A DNA stretch of 48,876 nt from Acidobacteriota bacterium (GTDB lineage: Bacteria; Acidobacteriota; Vicinamibacteria; Vicinamibacterales; JAFNAJ01): assembly GCA_023384575.1 (NCBI GenBank), contig JAHDVP010000039.1:1-48876 (forward strand). The letters run 5' to 3'. The position numbers and the translations under genes were made by a program. This document shows positions 39,592 through 46,606 of this stretch, piece after piece. The notes under the pieces were generated by a model, which ran no database searches, had not been told where the DNA came from, and worked only from the letters and a program-made list of their open reading frames with translations. Position 1 is the first letter of the stretch. The number at the start of each line of letters is the position of its first letter.

Positions 39592-42156
39592 TCAGGAGGC
39601 CCAGACAATGAGGCCCATCTCGTGCGGGTGGCCGAGATCCTCGTGGCGTGGCAGCACGCGGACGGTCAGGCCCTGGGTGCCGCTCGTGCGGCACGGCACG
39701 GTGGCCTCGAACACGGTGTCGGCCGCGCGAGGGGAGGCCGCGCTCGCCTGCATGGGTACGATGCCCGGCTGGACGATCTCGCGGCCCTCGTGCAGCCGGC
39801 CGAGGCACACCTGCGGCGCGACGTCGTCTGGGCCGAGGGAGCCCGTGTGAACGGTGGCGCGTACGACGACGTCGTGACCGACCTGCGTGTGGGGGGGCAG
39901 GACGACGTCGACCGACGTCACGCGGACCTCGCGCCAGTGGGCGCGCACGCGCGCCTTCCAGGCCGCGAGGGCGCGCGCGCGCCGGAAGTGGTCGTCCTCC
40001 AGCCTCGCCCGGCGCTCGTCGGCCGGCACGTACCCGCCGACCACGTATTGGTGCAGCATCCGGTTCGTGTTGAATACCGGGCAGAGCGCGGTAATCGCGC
40101 TGCGCATGCGCGCGACCCAGCCGCGGGGGACGTCGTCGGCCCCCCGCGTGTAGAAGAGCGGCACGATCTCGTGCTCGAGCAGGTCGAGCAGCGCGCCGGC
40201 CTCGACCCGATCCTGATACTCGTGATCCTCGTACTCCTCGCCCCGTCCGATGGCCCAGCCGATGTCCGGCGAGTAGCCTTCGTCCCACCAGCCGTCGAGG
40301 ATACTCAGGTTGAGCGCGCCGTTGAACGCGGCTTTCATGCCGCTCGTGCCGCTCGCTTCGAGCGGCCGGCGTGGCGTGTTCAGCCAGACGTCGACGCCCT
40401 GCACGAGGTAGCGCGCGGCGATCTGGTCGTAGTCCTCGAGGAACACGATGCGACGCGCGAACTCGGGGCGGCGCGCCATCTGCACGATGTCGCGGATGAG
40501 GGCCTTTCCCGGCTCGTCGTGCGGGTGCGCCTTGCCCGCCACGAGCACCTGCACCGGCCGGTCGGCCGCATTGAGGATCCGGGCGAGGCGCTCGGGGTCG
40601 CGGAAGAGCAGCGTGCCGCGCTTGTAAGTGGCGAAGCGGCGCGCGAAGCCGATCGTCAGGGCCTCGGGGTCGAGGGCCTGTTCGGCGGCGGCCCGCTCGG
40701 TTGCGCTCGCACCGCGGGTCGAGAGCTGCGCCGCCAGCCGGCGGCGGCAGAAGCCGACGAGTCGCTCGCGCCGGCGCTCGTGCGTGCGCCACAGTTCCTC
40801 GCCGGGAATCTGCGCGCTGCGCGCCCATACCGCGGTGTCGCCGGGCTGCTCGGCCCAGCGCGGCCCGAGGTACCGGTCGTACAGCGTGCGCATGTCGTCG
40901 GAGATCCACGACTGCGGATGCACGCCGTTGGTGACGTAGCCGATGGGCACCTCCTCGACGGGCACGCCGGCCCAGACCACCTGCCACATCCGGCGTGAGA
41001 CCCGCCCGTGGAGCCGACTCACGCCGTTGACCGCGCTCGCCGTGCGCATGGCGAGCACCGCCATGTTGAACGGCGCGTCGTGGTGGCCAGGTTGCGAGCG
41101 CCCGAGATCGAGGAACGCCTCACGTGACAGGCCGAACGCCTCGCGATACGAGCCGAAGTAGCGATCCATCTGTTCGGGAGAGAAGGTGTCGATGCCGGCC
41201 GGCACGGGCGTGTGCGTGGTGAAGAGCCCGCTCGTGGTGACGATCTCCAGGGCCTCGTGGAACGACACCTGGTGCTTGCCCATCAGGTAACGAATCCGCT
41301 CGAGCCCGAGAAACGCGCAGTGCCCCTCGTTCATGTGGAAGATGCGCGGGCTGAGGTCGAGCGCGAGCAGGGCCCGGATGCCGCCGACTCCGAGCACGAT
41401 CTCCTGGTGCAGACGCATGTCGCTGTTGCCGCCGTACAGCTCGTCGGTGATGTCCTGGAGGTCCGGCGGATTCTCGGGGATGTTCGTGTCGAGCAACACG
41501 AGTGTCACGCGGCCCACCTGGACGCGCCAGCAGCGCACGACCACCGTGCGACCCGCGAGGTCGAGCGTCACGTGCACCGGCGCCCCGTCGGCCGTGTGGA
41601 ACGGCTTGAGCGGCATGACCGAGAAGTCGTTGACCGGACGTCGTTCCTGCTGCCAGCCCTCCGACGTCAGATACTGCCGGAAGTATCCCTTCTGATAGAG
41701 GAGACCGACGCCGACGAGCGGCACGCCGAGCTCGCTCGCCGACTTCAGGTGGTCGCCCGCGAGGATGCCGAGGCCGCCGGAGTAGATGGGCAGACACTCG
41801 GTGAGGCCGAATTCCATCGAGAAGTAGGCGACGAGCGGCCGCGAGGCATGCCCGTGCCGCTTCTCGTACCAGGTCGTGCCGTTGGCGACGTAGTCGCGCA
41901 AGCTTGCCGTCACGCGATCGAGATGGGCGAGGAACGCTTCGTCTTCGGCGGCCTGCTCGAGCCGCTCCTGCGGGAGGCTGCCGAGCAGCAGCACGGGGTT
42001 GTGCCCGGTGTCCTCCCAGAGGTCGCGGTCGAGCCGGCGGAAGAGGCTGATGGTCTCGTGGTCCCACGACCAGCGCAGGTTGTAGGCGAGCTCCTCGAGC
42101 GCGGCGAGCCGTGCCGGCAGGGCGGGACGGACGTGGAAGGTCTTGATCGGGCGCAT
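39592..42156 (-). CDS. glgP: alpha-glucan (glycogen) phosphorylase
   Basis: The enzyme cleaves alpha-1,4-glucans with phosphate to glucose 1-phosphate, using PLP, in the cytosol. It has 854 residues, the length of the GlgP form that begins with a DUF3417 domain (LPARLAALEELAYNLRWSWD). Further landmarks: YFSMEFGLTECLPIYSGGLG, then ILAGDHLKSASE; FHMNEGHCAF; VTNGVHPQSWI; and near the PLP site LEASGTSGMKAAFNGALNLS, which contains the Schiff-base Lys. The start ATG 42156 sits 6 nt after TAGCGT, with no Shine-Dalgarno between. No glycogen synthase or branching enzyme is in the window. Confidence 0.95.
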   Translation of the reverse strand: MRPIKTFHVRPALPARLAALEELAYNLRWSWDHETISLFRRLDRDLWEDTGHNPVLLLGSLPQERLEQAAEDEAFLAHLDRVTASLRDYVANGTTWYEKRHGHASRPLVAYFSMEFGLTECLPIYSGGLGILAGDHLKSASELGVPLVGVGLLYQKGYFRQYLTSEGWQQERRPVNDFSVMPLKPFHTADGAPVHVTLDLAGRTVVVRCWRVQVGRVTLVLLDTNIPENPPDLQDITDELYGGNSDMRLHQEIVLGVGGIRALLALDLSPRIFHMNEGHCAFLGLERIRYLMGKHQVSFHEALEIVTTSGLFTTHTPVPAGIDTFSPEQMDRYFGSYREAFGLSREAFLDLGRSQPGHHDAPFNMAVLAMRTASAVNGVSRLHGRVSRRMWQVVWAGVPVEEVPIGYVTNGVHPQSWISDDMRTLYDRYLGPRWAEQPGDTAVWARSAQIPGEELWRTHERRRERLVGFCRRRLAAQLSTRGASATERAAAEQALDPEALTIGFARRFATYKRGTLLFRDPERLARILNAADRPVQVLVAGKAHPHDEPGKALIRDIVQMARRPEFARRIVFLEDYDQIAARYLVQGVDVWLNTPRRPLEASGTSGMKAAFNGALNLSILDGWWDEGYSPDIGWAIGRGEEYEDHEYQDRVEAGALLDLLEHEIVPLFYTRGADDVPRGWVARMRSAITALCPVFNTNRMLHQYVVGGYVPADERRARLEDDHFRRARALAAWKARVRAHWREVRVTSVDVVLPPHTQVGHDVVVRATVHTGSLGPDDVAPQVCLGRLHEGREIVQPGIVPMQASAASPRAADTVFEATVPCRTSGTQGLTVRVLPRHEDLGHPHEMGLIVWAS

Positions 42157-42162
42157 GGGAGC

Positions 42163-42168
42163 ACGCTA
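42163..42168 (-). promoter_or_regulatory. -10-like box 6 nt before glgP start
   Basis: On the minus strand TAGCGT is followed by GCTCCC and ATG 42156. The same hexamer with the same spacing precedes the VTT gene (23467-23472). No clear -35. Confidence 0.35.
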
Positions 42169-42193
42169 CACCCGGCACCCGGCGCGGGCAAGT

Positions 42194-42228
42194 GCGGGCT
42201 CCACGCGGGCTCCACGCGCGGGCTCCAC
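42194..42228. repeat. short tandem repeat (11-bp unit, three copies)
   Basis: GCGGGCTCCAC occurs at 42194-42204, 42205-42215 and 42218-42228. It lies in the divergent region between glgP and the cytochrome gene. Function unknown. Confidence 0.75.
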
Positions 42229-42301
42229 GCCTGAACCCCGCGCCACGCCGCGGCGTGGCCATGGCTCGCTCTTTGCAGCGCTGCCCGTCATCGTCTTCAT
42301 C

Positions 42302-42319
42302 CTGCCGGGTTTTCGGCAG
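42302..42319. repeat. hairpin in glgP / cytochrome intergenic region
   Basis: CTGCCG (42302-42307) and CGGCAG (42314-42319) flank GGTTTT. It is a perfect 6-bp stem about 125 bp before the cytochrome start. Possible 5'-leader structure; no further evidence. Confidence 0.5.
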
Positions 42320-42443
42320 CGCGTCACGGCGGATATTCCGGCGGTCGGTCGAATCATCGCTCAGCGCTCGACCCCTGCGTCGCGGCGGCCCGCTGCGGGC
42401 CGCGCGGCGCACCCACTCCGCGCCCCCGCTGCGAGTGGCCTCC

Positions 42444-42905
42444 ATGAAGGGCCGGTTCGAAGACTACGCGCACGTCCTGCGCCTCGTCGCCATCTTCGCG
42501 GCGGGCCTCGTCCTCTTCCTCATGCTCAGGGCCTGGCTGGTGCCGGACGACTTCGGCGTCTACGGCCACTATCGTGCGCGGGCCCTCGACGCCAACCGCG
42601 ACCATCCCGTCGTCTTCGCGGGCGCGCAGGCATGCATCGACTGCCACGGCGACGTCGCCGAGACGCGGGCCGCTGGCCGTCACGCCACGGTCAGCTGCGA
42701 GGCGTGCCACGGCGCGCTCGCCGCGCACGCGGCAGGCGAGAGCGACGAGATCCCGGCGCGGCCCGATCCACGCGTGGGCTGCGAACGCTGCCACGACGCG
42801 CGGGCCGGCAAGCCCGTCGCGTTTCCGCAGGTCGACGTCGCCGACCACGCGCCCGAGGGCGCGTGCACCGCCTGTCACCAGCCGCACAGCCCGGTCATCC
42901 AGTAG
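42444..42905 (+). CDS. membrane-anchored tetraheme cytochrome c
   Basis: The protein has 153 residues from ATG 42444; the longer frame to 42192 reads through repeats. A single membrane span near the N-terminus (VLRLVAIFAAGLVLFLML) anchors it, leaving the heme domain outside. Four CxxCH heme sites are clear: CIDCH (64), CEACH (85), CERCH (113) and CTACH (141). It resembles the cytochrome subunits of quinone-linked NrfD-type complexes such as QrcA or DsrJ-like proteins, but I cannot assign a family. The ferredoxin gene starts 10 bp downstream and NrfD follows, so the three are an operon-like electron-transfer module at the membrane. Confidence 0.87.
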   Translation: MKGRFEDYAHVLRLVAIFAAGLVLFLMLRAWLVPDDFGVYGHYRARALDANRDHPVVFAGAQACIDCHGDVAETRAAGRHATVSCEACHGALAAHAAGESDEIPARPDPRVGCERCHDARAGKPVAFPQVDVADHAPEGACTACHQPHSPVIQ

Positions 42906-42915
42906 GAGCGTTTCG

Positions 42916-43680
42916 ATGGACCACGACCGCCGCGCGTTCCTCGCACAGACCGGCAAGCTGCTGGTGCTCACGGGCGCCGCCGCCGTCGCCTGGGATCACG
43001 TGCTCGCCGGCGCGCCGGAAGGGGCGCCGAACTACCGCGCCACCGACCACTGGTGGGCGATGATCGTCGACATCGAGGTCTGCATCGGGTGCGGCACGTG
43101 CGTCAGCGCCTGCAAGACCGAGAACGACGTCCCGGTCACGCCAGGCGCGTTCCGCACCTGGGTGGAGCGGTACCAGGTCGATCCGCTCGACTGGGAGCAC
43201 CCGCTCGTCGACTCGCCGGACGGGGCCTACTCGGGGTTCCCCGACCTCACGCACTCCACCGACGATCGCAAGGTGTTCTTCGTGCCGAAGCTGTGCAACC
43301 AGTGCGCCGATTCGCCGTGCGTGCAGGTGTGCCCGGTCGGCGCCACCTTCGTCTCGCCCGATGGCGTGGTGCTCGTTGACAAGGACTACTGCCTCGGCTG
43401 CCGCTACTGCGTGCAGGCCTGCCCGTACGGCAGCCGCTTCATCGACCACCGGTCGATGACCGCCGACAAGTGCACGTTCTGCTACCACCGCATCACGCGC
43501 GGCCTGACGACGGCATGCTGCGAGGTGTGTCCGACGGGCGCGCGCCGGCTCGCCGACCTGAAGAACCCCGCCGACCCCGTGCACGAGTTCCTGCGCACGC
43601 ACAAGGTCCACGTCCTGAAGCCGCAACTGGCGACGGGCTCGAAGGTCTACTACCACGGCCTCGACGGCTCGGTTCGATAG
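42916..43680 (+). CDS. Tat-exported ferredoxin subunit with four 4Fe-4S clusters (NrfC/PsrB-like)
   Basis: The protein has 254 residues. An N-terminal twin-arginine signal (DRRAFLAQTGKLLVLTGAAA) directs folded export. Sixteen cluster cysteines appear in four groups: 56/59/62/66 in CIGCGTCVSAC, 127/130/135/139 in CNQCADSPCVQVC, 159/162/165/169 in CLGCRYCVQAC and 186/189/201/205 in CTFCY...CCEVC. That is the DMSO/polysulfide-reductase electron-transfer subunit pattern, which normally bridges a catalytic Mo subunit and NrfD. Here no such catalytic subunit is nearby. The tetraheme cytochrome lies upstream and NrfD downstream. Confidence 0.92.
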   Translation: MDHDRRAFLAQTGKLLVLTGAAAVAWDHVLAGAPEGAPNYRATDHWWAMIVDIEVCIGCGTCVSACKTENDVPVTPGAFRTWVERYQVDPLDWEHPLVDSPDGAYSGFPDLTHSTDDRKVFFVPKLCNQCADSPCVQVCPVGATFVSPDGVVLVDKDYCLGCRYCVQACPYGSRFIDHRSMTADKCTFCYHRITRGLTTACCEVCPTGARRLADLKNPADPVHEFLRTHKVHVLKPQLATGSKVYYHGLDGSVR

Positions 43681-43689
43681 GGGCGCACC

Positions 43690-44859
43690 ATGCATGGCGT
43701 CGAAGGTTTCATCTTTCCGAACGAGTTCGAGCTCCAGTGGAGCGTGCTCATCGTGCTCTACCCCTTCATCACCGGGCTGGTGGCCGGGGCGTTCATCCTG
43801 GCGTCGCTCGAGCGGGTCTTCAACGTGCAGGCGGTGAAGCCGACGTACCGCCTCGCGCTGCTGACGGCGCTGGCCTTCCTGCTGGTCGCGCCCTTGCCGC
43901 TGCAACTGCACCTCGGCCACCCAGCCCGGTCGTTCTCGATGTACCTCACGCCGCACCGCGAGTCGGCGATGGCGATGTTCGGGTTCGTCTACCTCTGGTA
44001 CCTGATGGTGGTCCTGCTGCTCGAGATCTGGTTCGACTACCGCAAGGACCTGGTGCTGACGAAGCGGGCGAGCACGGGCCTCAAGCGCTGGTTCTACGGC
44101 GTGCTGACGCTCGGGTCGGACAACATCTCGGAGGGCGCGCTGCGCGTCGACGACCGGCTGGGGCGGATCATCACCGTTGTCGGCATCCCGTCGGCCTTCC
44201 TGCTGCACGGGTACGTGGGATTCATCTTCGGGTCGGTGAAGGCGAACCCCTGGTGGTCGACGCCGCTCATGCCCGTGGTGTTCCTGTTCTCGGCCATCGT
44301 GTCGGGCATCGCGCTGGTGATGCTCATCTACATGGCCGCCACGTGGCTGCGGCGGCAGCCCATCGACATGAAGTGTGTCGACACGATCGCGAAGTATCTC
44401 TTCTATGCGTTCCTCATCGATTTCTCGCTCGAGATGCTCGACCTGCTGCACCGCATCTACGAGTCGGACGAGTCGTTCCGCGCGCTCGACTTCATGGTTC
44501 ACACGCGCCTCTTCACGTCGCAGATCGTCATTCAGATCATCGTCGGCACCCTCGTGCCGCTCGCCCTGCTGGCGCTGCCGCAGCTCATGACTCTCGCCGA
44601 GAGGACACGGCGCACGATCTACGTCGTCGGCGGGGTGCTCACGCTCGTCGGCATCTTCGCGATGCGCTGGAACGTCGTGATCGGCGGGCAGCTCTTCTCG
44701 AAGAGCTTCCTCGGCTACACGTCGTACAAGATGGAGTTCGCCACGCGCGAGGGGCTGCTCCCCGCGATTCTGCTGATGATTCTGCCGTTCGTGATCCTCT
44801 GGGCGCTGGTGCGGCTGCTGCCGCCGTGGGACCACGCGCCCGCCTCGGCCCGCGAGTGA
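43690..44859 (+). CDS. NrfD/PsrC-type quinone-interacting membrane subunit
   Basis: The protein has 389 residues and about eight to nine membrane spans. NrfD-like features: the start with FELQWSVLIVLYPFITGLVA, LHLGHPARSFSMYL (a conserved His-x-G-x-P patch), FGFVYLWYLMVVLLLEIWFD, and the later FLIDFSLEMLDLLHRIYESD. It would oxidise or reduce quinol in the membrane and hand electrons to the iron-sulfur subunit. The gene begins 9 bp after that subunit. The longer DUF-type membrane gene 19 bp downstream is probably in the same transcript but is not of the NrfD family. Confidence 0.9.
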   Translation: MHGVEGFIFPNEFELQWSVLIVLYPFITGLVAGAFILASLERVFNVQAVKPTYRLALLTALAFLLVAPLPLQLHLGHPARSFSMYLTPHRESAMAMFGFVYLWYLMVVLLLEIWFDYRKDLVLTKRASTGLKRWFYGVLTLGSDNISEGALRVDDRLGRIITVVGIPSAFLLHGYVGFIFGSVKANPWWSTPLMPVVFLFSAIVSGIALVMLIYMAATWLRRQPIDMKCVDTIAKYLFYAFLIDFSLEMLDLLHRIYESDESFRALDFMVHTRLFTSQIVIQIIVGTLVPLALLALPQLMTLAERTRRTIYVVGGVLTLVGIFAMRWNVVIGGQLFSKSFLGYTSYKMEFATREGLLPAILLMILPFVILWALVRLLPPWDHAPASARE

Positions 44860-44878: not shown

Positions 44879-46606
44879 ATGGACGAGCGACTCGACCGCG
44901 TGGAGGCCAGCCTCCTCCGTCTGGAAGGGACGTTGCTCGGCCTCGAGGCGCGCGTCGCCCATCTCGAGGCGCGCGTCGGCGAGGCGCCGCGTCCGATCGG
45001 GGCCGACGCGGCAGCCCTGGTGGAGATCGCGCAGGGTGGCGTCGCGCCTCCCGTCGGGCGCGAGCAGGACGTCGCCGGGCTCCTCTCGCTCGCAGGCCGG
45101 ACGCTGCTCGTGCTGGGCGGCGCGTACGTGCTGCGTGCGCTGACCGACGGCGAGGCGCTCCCGCGCGGCGCAGGTGTTGCCTTCGGGCTGGTCTACGCCG
45201 CGGCGTGGCTGGGTGCGGCCCACGCTTCGGCCGGCGAGCGCTCGACGAGCGCGACGTTCCACGGCGGCGTGGGCCTCGCCATCGGCATGCCGCTCGTCTG
45301 GGAGGCCACCACACGGTTCGGCCTGCTGTCCCCGGCCTGGGGTGCGGTCGCGCTCGCTGCGCTGACCGCGGGCGGCCTGGTCGTGGCCTGGCACAAGCAC
45401 CTGCACCTGCTCGCCTGGCTGGCGACCGGCGGGGCCCTCGCTGCCGCGATCGCGCTCATGGTGACGACCGGCGCGTACCTGCCCGTCGCTGTCTTCACCA
45501 TCAGCCTTGGCCTCGCCGCGTTGTGGCTCGGGTACGACCGCGACTGGTTCGGACTGCGCTGGGTGGTCGCCCTGCCGGCCAACGTGCTCGTCGTCATGGT
45601 GACGAGCCGGGCACTCGCCGGACGCGAGGATCCCGCGACGGCGCTCGGCGTGCAATTGCTGCTCGTCGCGGCCTACCTCGGCGTCATCGCGGCCCGCACC
45701 CTCGTGCGCGGCCGCAGCGTGATTCCCTTCGAGGTGGCGCAGACCATCGTCGGGTCCGCCGTCGGCCTCGGCGGCGCCGTGGCGTTGGTCCGCGCCAGCG
45801 GCAGCGGCATGGTTCCCCTCGGGGTCGCGAGCCTCGGGCTCGGCGTCGCCACGTACGCCGTGGCGTTCGCGTTCGTCGATCGCCGCCAGGGGCACGGGCT
45901 GAACTTCTACTACTACACGACGTTCGCGCTGGCGCTGACGCTCGTTGGCGGCACGCTGCTGCTGGCGGGACAGGTGGCCGCGCTGCTGTGGGCCGGCCTG
46001 GCCGTGGCTTCGTGCGTGCTCGGCCGCCGCCTGTCGCGCCTGGCCTTCGCCCTTCACGGTGCCGTGTACGTCGTGGCGGCCGCCTGGACGTCGGGTCTTG
46101 CGGCCAGCGCCGCGTCGGCGCTGACGGCGCAGAGCACAGCCGTGTGGCCCGCGCCGACACTCGCCGCGTGGACCGTCCTATTCGCCATCGTGGCCTGCGC
46201 GGTGATGCTCCCGCCCGACCCCACCGGCCGCTCGGATGGGATCGGCCGGATGCCACGCGTGACGGTGGCGACGCTTCTCCTCGTGTCGGCCGCGGGACTG
46301 ATCGTCGCGTGGCTCGTGTCGAGGTTCGCCGGCACGCCTGGCGTCGACGCCGATCCGGGCATCGTCGCCACGCTCCGCACCGTGGTGCTCGCCTCGGTCG
46401 CCGTGGCGGTGGCGTGGGCCGGAAGACACGCGCGTTTCCCCGACGTCGGCTGGGCGCTCTACCCGATCCTGGTCCTGACGGCCGTCAAGCTGGTCGTCGA
46501 AGACTTCCCGCGATCACGACCGGCGACGCTGTTTGTCGCCCTGGCGGCGTACGGCGTCGCGCTCATCCTGGCGCCCCGCCTGGGGCGGGGCGCCAGGGTG
46601 GAGTAG
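44879..46606 (+). CDS. polytopic membrane protein, DUF2339-like
   Basis: The protein has 575 residues. The N-terminal ~35 residues are a coiled coil (MDERLDRVEASLLRLEGTLL, LGLEARVAHLEARVGE). After a linker, about 14 or more hydrophobic helices fill the rest. A short helix then Leu-rich spans (AGRTLLVLGGAYVLRALTDG), and FNFYYYTT-like GLNFYYYTTFALALTLVGGT, recall DUF2339 membrane proteins, whose function is unknown. It is 19 bp after the NrfD gene, though a functional link to the redox module is not established. Its last codons lie in a perfect 14-bp hairpin. Confidence 0.6.
   Translation: MDERLDRVEASLLRLEGTLLGLEARVAHLEARVGEAPRPIGADAAALVEIAQGGVAPPVGREQDVAGLLSLAGRTLLVLGGAYVLRALTDGEALPRGAGVAFGLVYAAAWLGAAHASAGERSTSATFHGGVGLAIGMPLVWEATTRFGLLSPAWGAVALAALTAGGLVVAWHKHLHLLAWLATGGALAAAIALMVTTGAYLPVAVFTISLGLAALWLGYDRDWFGLRWVVALPANVLVVMVTSRALAGREDPATALGVQLLLVAAYLGVIAARTLVRGRSVIPFEVAQTIVGSAVGLGGAVALVRASGSGMVPLGVASLGLGVATYAVAFAFVDRRQGHGLNFYYYTTFALALTLVGGTLLLAGQVAALLWAGLAVASCVLGRRLSRLAFALHGAVYVVAAAWTSGLAASAASALTAQSTAVWPAPTLAAWTVLFAIVACAVMLPPDPTGRSDGIGRMPRVTVATLLLVSAAGLIVAWLVSRFAGTPGVDADPGIVATLRTVVLASVAVAVAWAGRHARFPDVGWALYPILVLTAVKLVVEDFPRSRPATLFVALAAYGVALILAPRLGRGARVE
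46567..46597. terminator. strong hairpin across the 3' end of the membrane protein gene
   Basis: A perfect 14-bp inverted repeat has arms 46567-46580 and 46584-46597 around TGG, all GC-rich. It lies inside the coding frame, ending 7 bp before the stop codon (46604-46606). No T-run follows, so it is not a classic intrinsic terminator. It sits between convergent genes. Confidence 0.45.

What the first reader, a model, noticed from the sequence alone, without database searches (positions are those of the whole stretch)
42444..44859. Tetraheme cytochrome / four-cluster ferredoxin / NrfD module without a catalytic subunit
The three genes supply a membrane-anchored tetraheme cytochrome, a Tat-exported 16-Cys ferredoxin and a quinone-interacting NrfD subunit. 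Related complexes normally have a molybdenum or other catalytic partner next door; none is here. The module might pass electrons from quinol to an external acceptor through the cytochrome, or serve a distant enzyme.
Basis: partly seen in the sequence, partly recalled or inferred. Interest (0 to 1): 0.55.

Follow-up and report, generated by a model that had tools for sequence, protein, structure and literature searches.

The report
Quinol-to-cytochrome relay of Geobacter type
These genes encode a membrane complex that most likely takes electrons from the cell's quinol pool and hands them to a cytochrome outside the inner membrane; it is the same kind of complex that iron-breathing Geobacter bacteria carry, so a separate catalytic enzyme next door is not expected.

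Summary
Three genes at 42444-44859 encode a one-helix tetraheme cytochrome, a Tat-signal four-cluster ferredoxin and an NrfD protein, with no catalytic gene nearby. A fourth gene (DUF2339 membrane protein, 44879-46606) follows after 19 nt and was missed. The set matches the composition of Geobacter Cbc4 (CbcSTU), a proposed menaquinol:cytochrome c oxidoreductase. The same three genes in the same order stand in 33 of 36 homologous loci from its own phylum, 5 of 6 named Geobacteraceae genomes and 2 of 2 Anaeromyxobacter genomes; their NrfDs form one clade. The cytochrome keeps exactly four invariant extra histidines, enough for four bis-His hemes. No molybdenum subunit was detected in 43 neighbourhoods. 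An ImcH-like multiheme quinol oxidase gene lies within 15 kb in 8 of 27 phylum genomes that have both, and near the module in 5 of 5 Geobacteraceae loci. The window's own genome has MtrAB-type outer-membrane conduits and an ImcH-like gene. Likely role: quinol oxidation feeding periplasmic multiheme cytochromes and probably extracellular electron transfer (inference). New member of a known kind; the conserved DUF2339 neighbour is the least explained part.

The parts
42444..42905 (+). CbcS-like membrane-anchored tetraheme c-type cytochrome, 153 aa; CXXCH at residues 64, 85, 113 and 141; candidate distal ligands H80, H95, H135, H148
   Evidence: ORF and motifs; Pfam Cytochrome_C7 and Cytochrom_c3_2 over cut-off; alignment of 41 homologues, all four CXXCH and these four His invariant
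42916..43680 (+). CbcT-like ferredoxin with Tat-type N-terminus and 16 conserved Cys (four 4Fe-4S clusters), 254 aa
   Evidence: Pfam Fer4_11 and others; nearest solved chain T. thermophilus 2vpw_B, deposited as NrfC protein, E 1e-39; conserved Cys and twin Arg
43690..44859 (+). CbcU-like NrfD-family integral membrane quinol-interacting subunit, 389 aa
   Evidence: PF03916 132.6 bits; clade with Geobacteraceae and Anaeromyxobacter NrfDs
44879..46606 (+). DUF2339 polytopic membrane protein with an N-terminal helical stretch rich in coiled-coil-like heptads, 575 aa; probable fourth gene of the operon
   Evidence: PF10101 34.1 bits, cut-off 33.6; 19 nt gap to NrfD; DUF2339-type gene next to the module in 9 of 36 phylum loci and 4 of 5 Geobacteraceae loci
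42157..42443 (.). divergent intergenic region, the probable promoter region of the operon
   Evidence: gap between the minus-strand phosphorylase gene (ends at 42156) and the cytochrome start; promoter itself not tested

Best explanation
The genes encode a Cbc4/CbcSTU-type menaquinol:cytochrome c oxidoreductase. NrfD (CbcU-like) oxidises quinol in the inner membrane, the periplasmic four-cluster ferredoxin (CbcT-like) takes the electrons, and the membrane-anchored tetraheme cytochrome (CbcS-like) passes them to soluble periplasmic multiheme cytochromes. No catalytic subunit is needed: the electron output is the product. In this organism the electrons then probably reach an outer-membrane MtrAB-type conduit and an extracellular acceptor, in parallel with the ImcH-like quinol oxidase. 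Shown: gene content, order, orthology, heme and cluster ligands, absence of a Mo subunit, ImcH linkage in relatives, presence of MtrAB and ImcH-like genes in the genome. Inferred: direction of electron flow, quinone type, acceptor, and any role of DUF2339.
For: Same composition described for Geobacter Cbc4: 4-heme CbcS, 4Fe-4S CbcT, membrane CbcU (passages). Three-gene order in 33 of 36 phylum loci, 5 of 6 named Geobacteraceae and 2 of 2 Anaeromyxobacter. Of 25 NrfD places in six Geobacteraceae genomes only 6 have a tetraheme-ferredoxin-NrfD set: five of the window's family and one of a second family. HMM scores 328-715 for the family, at most 111 for every other NrfD listed; tree clade 94/94. 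No Mo hit in 43 neighbourhoods, 10 of 10 positive-control loci hit. ImcH-like gene within 15 kb in 8 of 27 phylum genomes with both and in 5 of 5 Geobacteraceae loci (42% identity between the two phyla's versions). Own genome: MtrB/PioB porins at C29, C49, C33, each next to a 10-CXXCH ORF, ImcH-like gene at C29.
Against: In the window's genome the module is not linked to any of these EET genes. MtrB occurs in only 13 of 37 module-bearing genomes (60 of 297 overall, p 0.026, relatedness not corrected) and 6 of 37 have neither MtrB nor ImcH-like. I saw no biochemical activity for Cbc4 itself in the passages read. NrfD complexes can also run cytochrome-to-quinone, as Qrc does (PMC8076601 passage). 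The G. sulfurreducens CbcSTU sequence itself was not reached; the identity with Cbc4 rests on other Geobacteraceae genomes.
Confidence: 0.8

Rival explanations
1. The module serves a distant periplasmic reductase (for example one of the unlinked molybdopterin proteins) as a quinol dehydrogenase, like NrfBCD serving NrfA.
For: Own genome has 12 PF00384 matches, several without an adjacent NrfD, for example at C61 and C59.
Against: No Mo gene next to the module in 43 loci. The genome's NrfA lies beside its own NapC/NrfH-type cytochrome at C30. NrfD and ferredoxin are far below the NrfC, NrfD, TtrB, TtrC equivalog cut-offs.
Confidence: 0.1
2. The complex runs in reverse, feeding electrons from extracellular or periplasmic donors into the quinone pool.
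For: Qrc (NrfD family) reduces quinone from cytochrome c3 (PMC8076601 passage). CbcL/MtrH/MtoC homologues are implied in both directions (PMC6295460 abstract passage).
Against: The linked ImcH family has so far been implicated only in quinol oxidation (PMC6295460 passage).
Confidence: 0.15
3. A decayed remnant of a larger enzyme (Psr, Ttr, Dsr or ACIII type) that lost its catalytic gene.
For: Only the absence of a catalytic gene.
Against: Intact frames, 69-80% NrfD identity across many families, the same set without a catalytic gene in 33 of 36 relatives and in Geobacteraceae and Anaeromyxobacter, no DsrK-type CCG motif in the loci.
Confidence: 0.02

Closest known systems
Geobacter Cbc4 complex (CbcSTU)
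   Same: Tetraheme cytochrome, ferredoxin, NrfD in this order; NrfD clade; DUF2339 and ImcH-like neighbours shared with several Geobacteraceae loci.
   Different: 38-41% NrfD identity over the full length to Geobacteraceae members; the window's copy is not linked to ImcH; some relatives in its phylum have an 8-CXXCH cytochrome instead of 4.
Second 4-heme/ferredoxin/NrfD module (seen in L053, L054, L055, L056, L059, L061, L065 and G. argillaceus L192)
   Same: Same composition, often adjacent to the window's family.
   Different: Separate NrfD clade (99/94) and at most 58 bits to the window-family HMM.
Shewanella SirCD
   Same: Ferredoxin plus NrfD quinol dehydrogenase that can replace CymA and so works without a fixed catalytic partner (PMC11434368 passage).
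   Different: Sequence not compared; no tetraheme subunit named for SirCD in the passage seen.
NrfABCD (E. coli)
   Same: Cytochrome-ferredoxin-NrfD chain feeding a periplasmic acceptor.
   Different: NrfA partner and pentaheme NrfB next door; E. coli NrfD 47.7 bits to the family HMM.
ImcH / CymA (NapC/NirT family)
   Same: Same job, quinol oxidation into periplasmic cytochromes.
   Different: Unrelated single-protein NapC/NirT-type design; often a genomic neighbour here rather than a homologue.

Membership tests
Cbc4 / CbcSTU | Tetraheme CbcS, 4Fe-4S CbcT and membrane CbcU encoded together | tested here: met
   composition of Cbc4 from passages
Cbc4 / CbcSTU | Orthology of NrfD with the Geobacteraceae tetraheme-ferredoxin-NrfD operon | tested here: met
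   in five other Geobacteraceae genomes, not G. sulfurreducens itself
Cbc4 / CbcSTU | Menaquinol:cytochrome c oxidoreductase activity | not testable with these tools
   only proposed for Cbc4 in the passages read
NrfABCD | NrfA and NrfB neighbours; NrfC/NrfD equivalog scores | tested here: not met
   141.5 of 377.6 and 54.5 of 347.6 bits; no NrfA gene in the neighbourhood
PsrABC / TtrABC / ArrABC | Adjacent Mo-bis-MGD catalytic subunit | tested here: not met
DsrMKJOP | DsrM, DsrK (CCG motif) and triheme DsrJ present; DsrO/DsrP scores | tested here: not met
   DsrO 172.9 of 200, DsrP 41 of 350 bits; no CCG motif; four hemes
ACIII / Qrc | ActB/QrcB-type large subunit and ActA-type pentaheme next to NrfD; QrcC/QrcD scores | tested here: not met
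   QrcC 105.4 of 400, QrcD 22.4 of 570 bits; large FeS ActB-like ORFs with paired NrfDs stand elsewhere in the genome, C8 and C56

The most novel reading that the evidence does not exclude
The Cbc4 complex is a four-part system: the DUF2339 membrane protein encoded 19 nt downstream, and next to the module in 9 of 36 phylum loci and 4 of 5 Geobacteraceae loci, is an unrecognised subunit or partner (for example an ion-translocating or assembly subunit), and Cbc4 plus ImcH form a paired quinol-oxidising entry point to extracellular electron transfer across at least two phyla.
Probability: 0.25. Interest if true: 0.55.

Novelty: new member of a known kind. Interest (0 to 1): 0.32.

Why it matters
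Cbc4 is listed among the Geobacter inner-membrane quinone:cytochrome c oxidoreductases, yet the NrfD review consulted has no mention of it (0 occurrences of 'cbc'). Finding the complex patchily but strongly conserved in another phylum, linked to ImcH-like genes and to a DUF2339 gene, gives a comparative handle on what it does and suggests that part of this phylum can respire extracellular acceptors. It also shows why an NrfD module without a catalytic gene is not necessarily an orphan.

Tried and rejected
Calling it a Psr, Ttr, Nrf, Dsr or Qrc remnant was rejected on equivalog scores and the Mo search. A direct sequence match of NrfD to solved structures gave none. A structure model of the DUF2339 protein alone was poor (mean pLDDT 47.2) and was not used. 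The phylum alignment A1 was not sent for folding because its rows come from sources the tool does not list. My first BLAST filter for multiheme neighbours gave 14 of 36 loci with a gene of five or more CXXCH; I dropped L061 because its hit is a 952-residue stop-to-stop frame and used 13 of 36 against 2 of 29 control stretches. The controls are arbitrary contigs of the same genomes, 11 of the first 20 requested did not exist, and more were taken. The linkage probability of 5.6e-11 ignores relatedness: 5 of the 8 linked genomes belong to one family. Naming the phylum was not possible with the calls made; Acidobacteriota is my recollection-based guess only. Literature searches for locus tags of G. 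sulfurreducens cbcSTU gave nothing usable.

Full report
What is there. Three genes on the plus strand of contig C39 of the window's genome (5.89 Mb, 112 contigs) lie at 42444-42905, 42916-43680 and 43690-44859. They encode a 153-residue cytochrome with four CXXCH and one N-terminal hydrophobic helix, a 254-residue ferredoxin with a Tat-type DRRAF motif and 17 Cys, and a 389-residue NrfD protein with eight hydrophobic segments. A DUF2339 membrane protein gene starts 19 nt later (44879-46606), so the operon probably has four genes. Upstream is a divergent phosphorylase gene.

It is a conserved unit. A protein search with the window's NrfD over 297 genomes of the same phylum gave matches at E 1e-30 or better in 37 (22 including the window at 69% identity or more, 13 at 58-61%, one at 43%, one cut fragment). 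In the 36 non-window loci, the order cytochrome-ferredoxin-NrfD is kept in 33; in two the contig begins inside the ferredoxin gene, and one (L080, 43% identical) has neither partner. Twelve loci of the more distant group carry an 8-CXXCH cytochrome in place of the 4-CXXCH one, L079 shows 7 and starts at a contig edge, and L077 of the same group shows 4.

It is the Geobacter kind. The literature describes Cbc4 (CbcSTU) as a menaquinol:ferricytochrome c oxidoreductase made of a c-type cytochrome CbcS, an iron-sulfur protein CbcT and a membrane subunit CbcU, highly conserved in Geobacteraceae (PMC11434368, passages); PMC10989804 calls CbcS a 4-heme protein (table passage); PMC13130476 lists Cbc4 among seven inner-membrane quinone:cytochrome c oxidoreductases (passage); PMC7894505 lists it among putative menaquinol oxidoreductases (passages). 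To test this by sequence I used PpcA as an anchor to reach named genomes. The window's NrfD has clear homologues in Geobacter argillaceus, Geobacter sp. OR-1, Geomonas sp. Red32, Geomesophilobacter sediminis, Pelotalea chapellei, Anaeromyxobacter soli and A. terrae, but not in Oryzomonas japonica (7 of 8). All seven have a 4-CXXCH cytochrome and a ferredoxin directly upstream. A PF03916 search of the six Geobacteraceae genomes lists 25 NrfD places; only 6 have a tetraheme-ferredoxin-NrfD set, five of the window's family and one of a second family in G. argillaceus. Where larger stretches were read, other NrfDs sit with hydrogenase-like or molybdopterin-type genes (judged from lengths and N-termini, not scanned). 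So the conserved CbcSTU of these genomes is the window's family. The G. sulfurreducens proteins themselves were not reached.

Orthology. An HMM built from 13 family members scores all window-family NrfDs at 328-715 bits; every other NrfD listed, including E. coli NrfD (47.7) and the second-module NrfDs, scores 111 or less. In a maximum-likelihood tree of 39 rows the window, its phylum relatives, Geobacteraceae and Anaeromyxobacter form one clade (94/94) and the second-module NrfDs another (99/94); long branches of the outgroup are a caution. The tree used every second phylum row plus L077 and L080, not all.

Mechanism. In 41 cytochromes the four CXXCH and exactly four further histidines (H80, H95, H135, H148) are invariant, which fits four bis-His hemes; in 43 ferredoxins 16 Cys and the twin arginines are conserved (a few rows are cut, so some columns read 0.91-0.98). 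NrfD would oxidise quinol, the ferredoxin carry electrons, and the cytochrome hand them on. The direction is inferred; SirCD of Shewanella is a precedent for a ferredoxin/NrfD pair serving several acceptors in place of CymA (PMC11434368, passage), while Qrc is a precedent for the reverse direction (PMC8076601, passage).

No missing catalytic subunit. Six molybdopterin proteins of the genome used as tblastn probes gave no hit in 43 neighbourhoods but hit 10 of 10 known molybdopterin loci; no DsrK-type CCG motif was found. Some neighbourhoods are short because contigs end.

Where the electrons go. Near the module in relatives, genes with five or more CXXCH occur in 13 of 36 loci (14 before one doubtful frame was dropped) against 2 of 29 control stretches (p 0.007). 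The recurrent one is a 12-CXXCH NapC/NirT protein directly upstream in six loci, 42% identical to the NapC/NirT cytochrome next to CbcSTU in Pelotalea, a family I identify with ImcH from its design (recalled; no ImcH reference sequence was compared). ImcH-like genes occur in 127 of 297 phylum genomes and in 27 of 37 with the module (p 1.3e-4, relatedness not corrected); in 8 of these 27 they lie within 15 kb of NrfD (families f12 five times, f52, f58, f64), and all five Geobacteraceae loci have one nearby. MtrB/PioB porins occur in 60 of 297 and 13 of 37 (p 0.026); six of 37 module genomes have neither. The window's genome has three MtrB/PioB matches, each beside a 10-CXXCH ORF, an ImcH-like gene at C29:8057-9427 beside an 11-CXXCH ORF and MtrAB, and a pair of frames with many CXXCH at C6:146-149 kb. 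It also has a NapC/NrfH-type cytochrome beside NrfA at C30, so nitrite reduction does not need this module. Extracellular electron transfer is therefore the most plausible use, but in this genome the link is by co-occurrence, not by neighbourhood.

The DUF2339 gene. It follows NrfD on the same strand in the window and in 6 of 36 phylum loci, lies next to the module in another orientation in three more, and accompanies it in 4 of 5 Geobacteraceae loci, three on the same strand (in L194 the Pfam score is below the cut-off, as it is in L046 and L073). The genome has only two DUF2339 genes. Ten papers mention DUF2339 in the library (listing only); none of the titles concerns respiration. Its role is unknown.

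Verdict. A new member of a known kind: a Cbc4-type quinol:cytochrome c oxidoreductase.

Noticed in passing
44879-46606 and loci L046, L048, L052, L063, L064, L066, L194, L195, L196: DUF2339 membrane protein gene repeatedly directly downstream of the NrfD gene in two or more phyla.
   Followed up: partly
L192 5458-8366, L053 6969-9811, L054 475-3311, L059, L061, L065 (own-phylum and Geobacter argillaceus loci): A second, distinct tetraheme-ferredoxin-NrfD module stands next to the window's family in several genomes, in both phyla.
   Followed up: partly
L067-L076, L078, L081: Relatives in the more distant group have an 8-CXXCH cytochrome that aligns twice to the window's cytochrome, as if the tetraheme unit had been duplicated in tandem.
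   Followed up: partly
L085 6506-10588 (G000:C37): Another NrfD set in the same genome with no molybdopterin match nearby: Tat ferredoxin, HybB-like NrfD, triheme cytochrome and two membrane-anchored proteins that look like glycine-cleavage H (lipoyl) domains (by eye, not scanned).
   Followed up: no
G000:C6:146151-149239: Two neighbouring long frames (756 and 776 residues) full of paired CXXCH motifs, like the 26- and 16-CXXCH pair near the module in L062.
   Followed up: no
L204 5437-13041 (G000:C29): Monoheme cytochrome, 11-CXXCH cytochrome, ImcH-like NapC/NirT cytochrome, 10-CXXCH MtrA-like protein and MtrB/PioB porin in one cluster.
   Followed up: partly
L094 3140-11111 (G000:C1): Large Tat-signal 1148-residue protein with PF00384 match, ferredoxin, 7-CXXCH cytochrome and a 580-residue ORF that clusters with cytochrome b: a possible further respiratory complex.
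   Followed up: no
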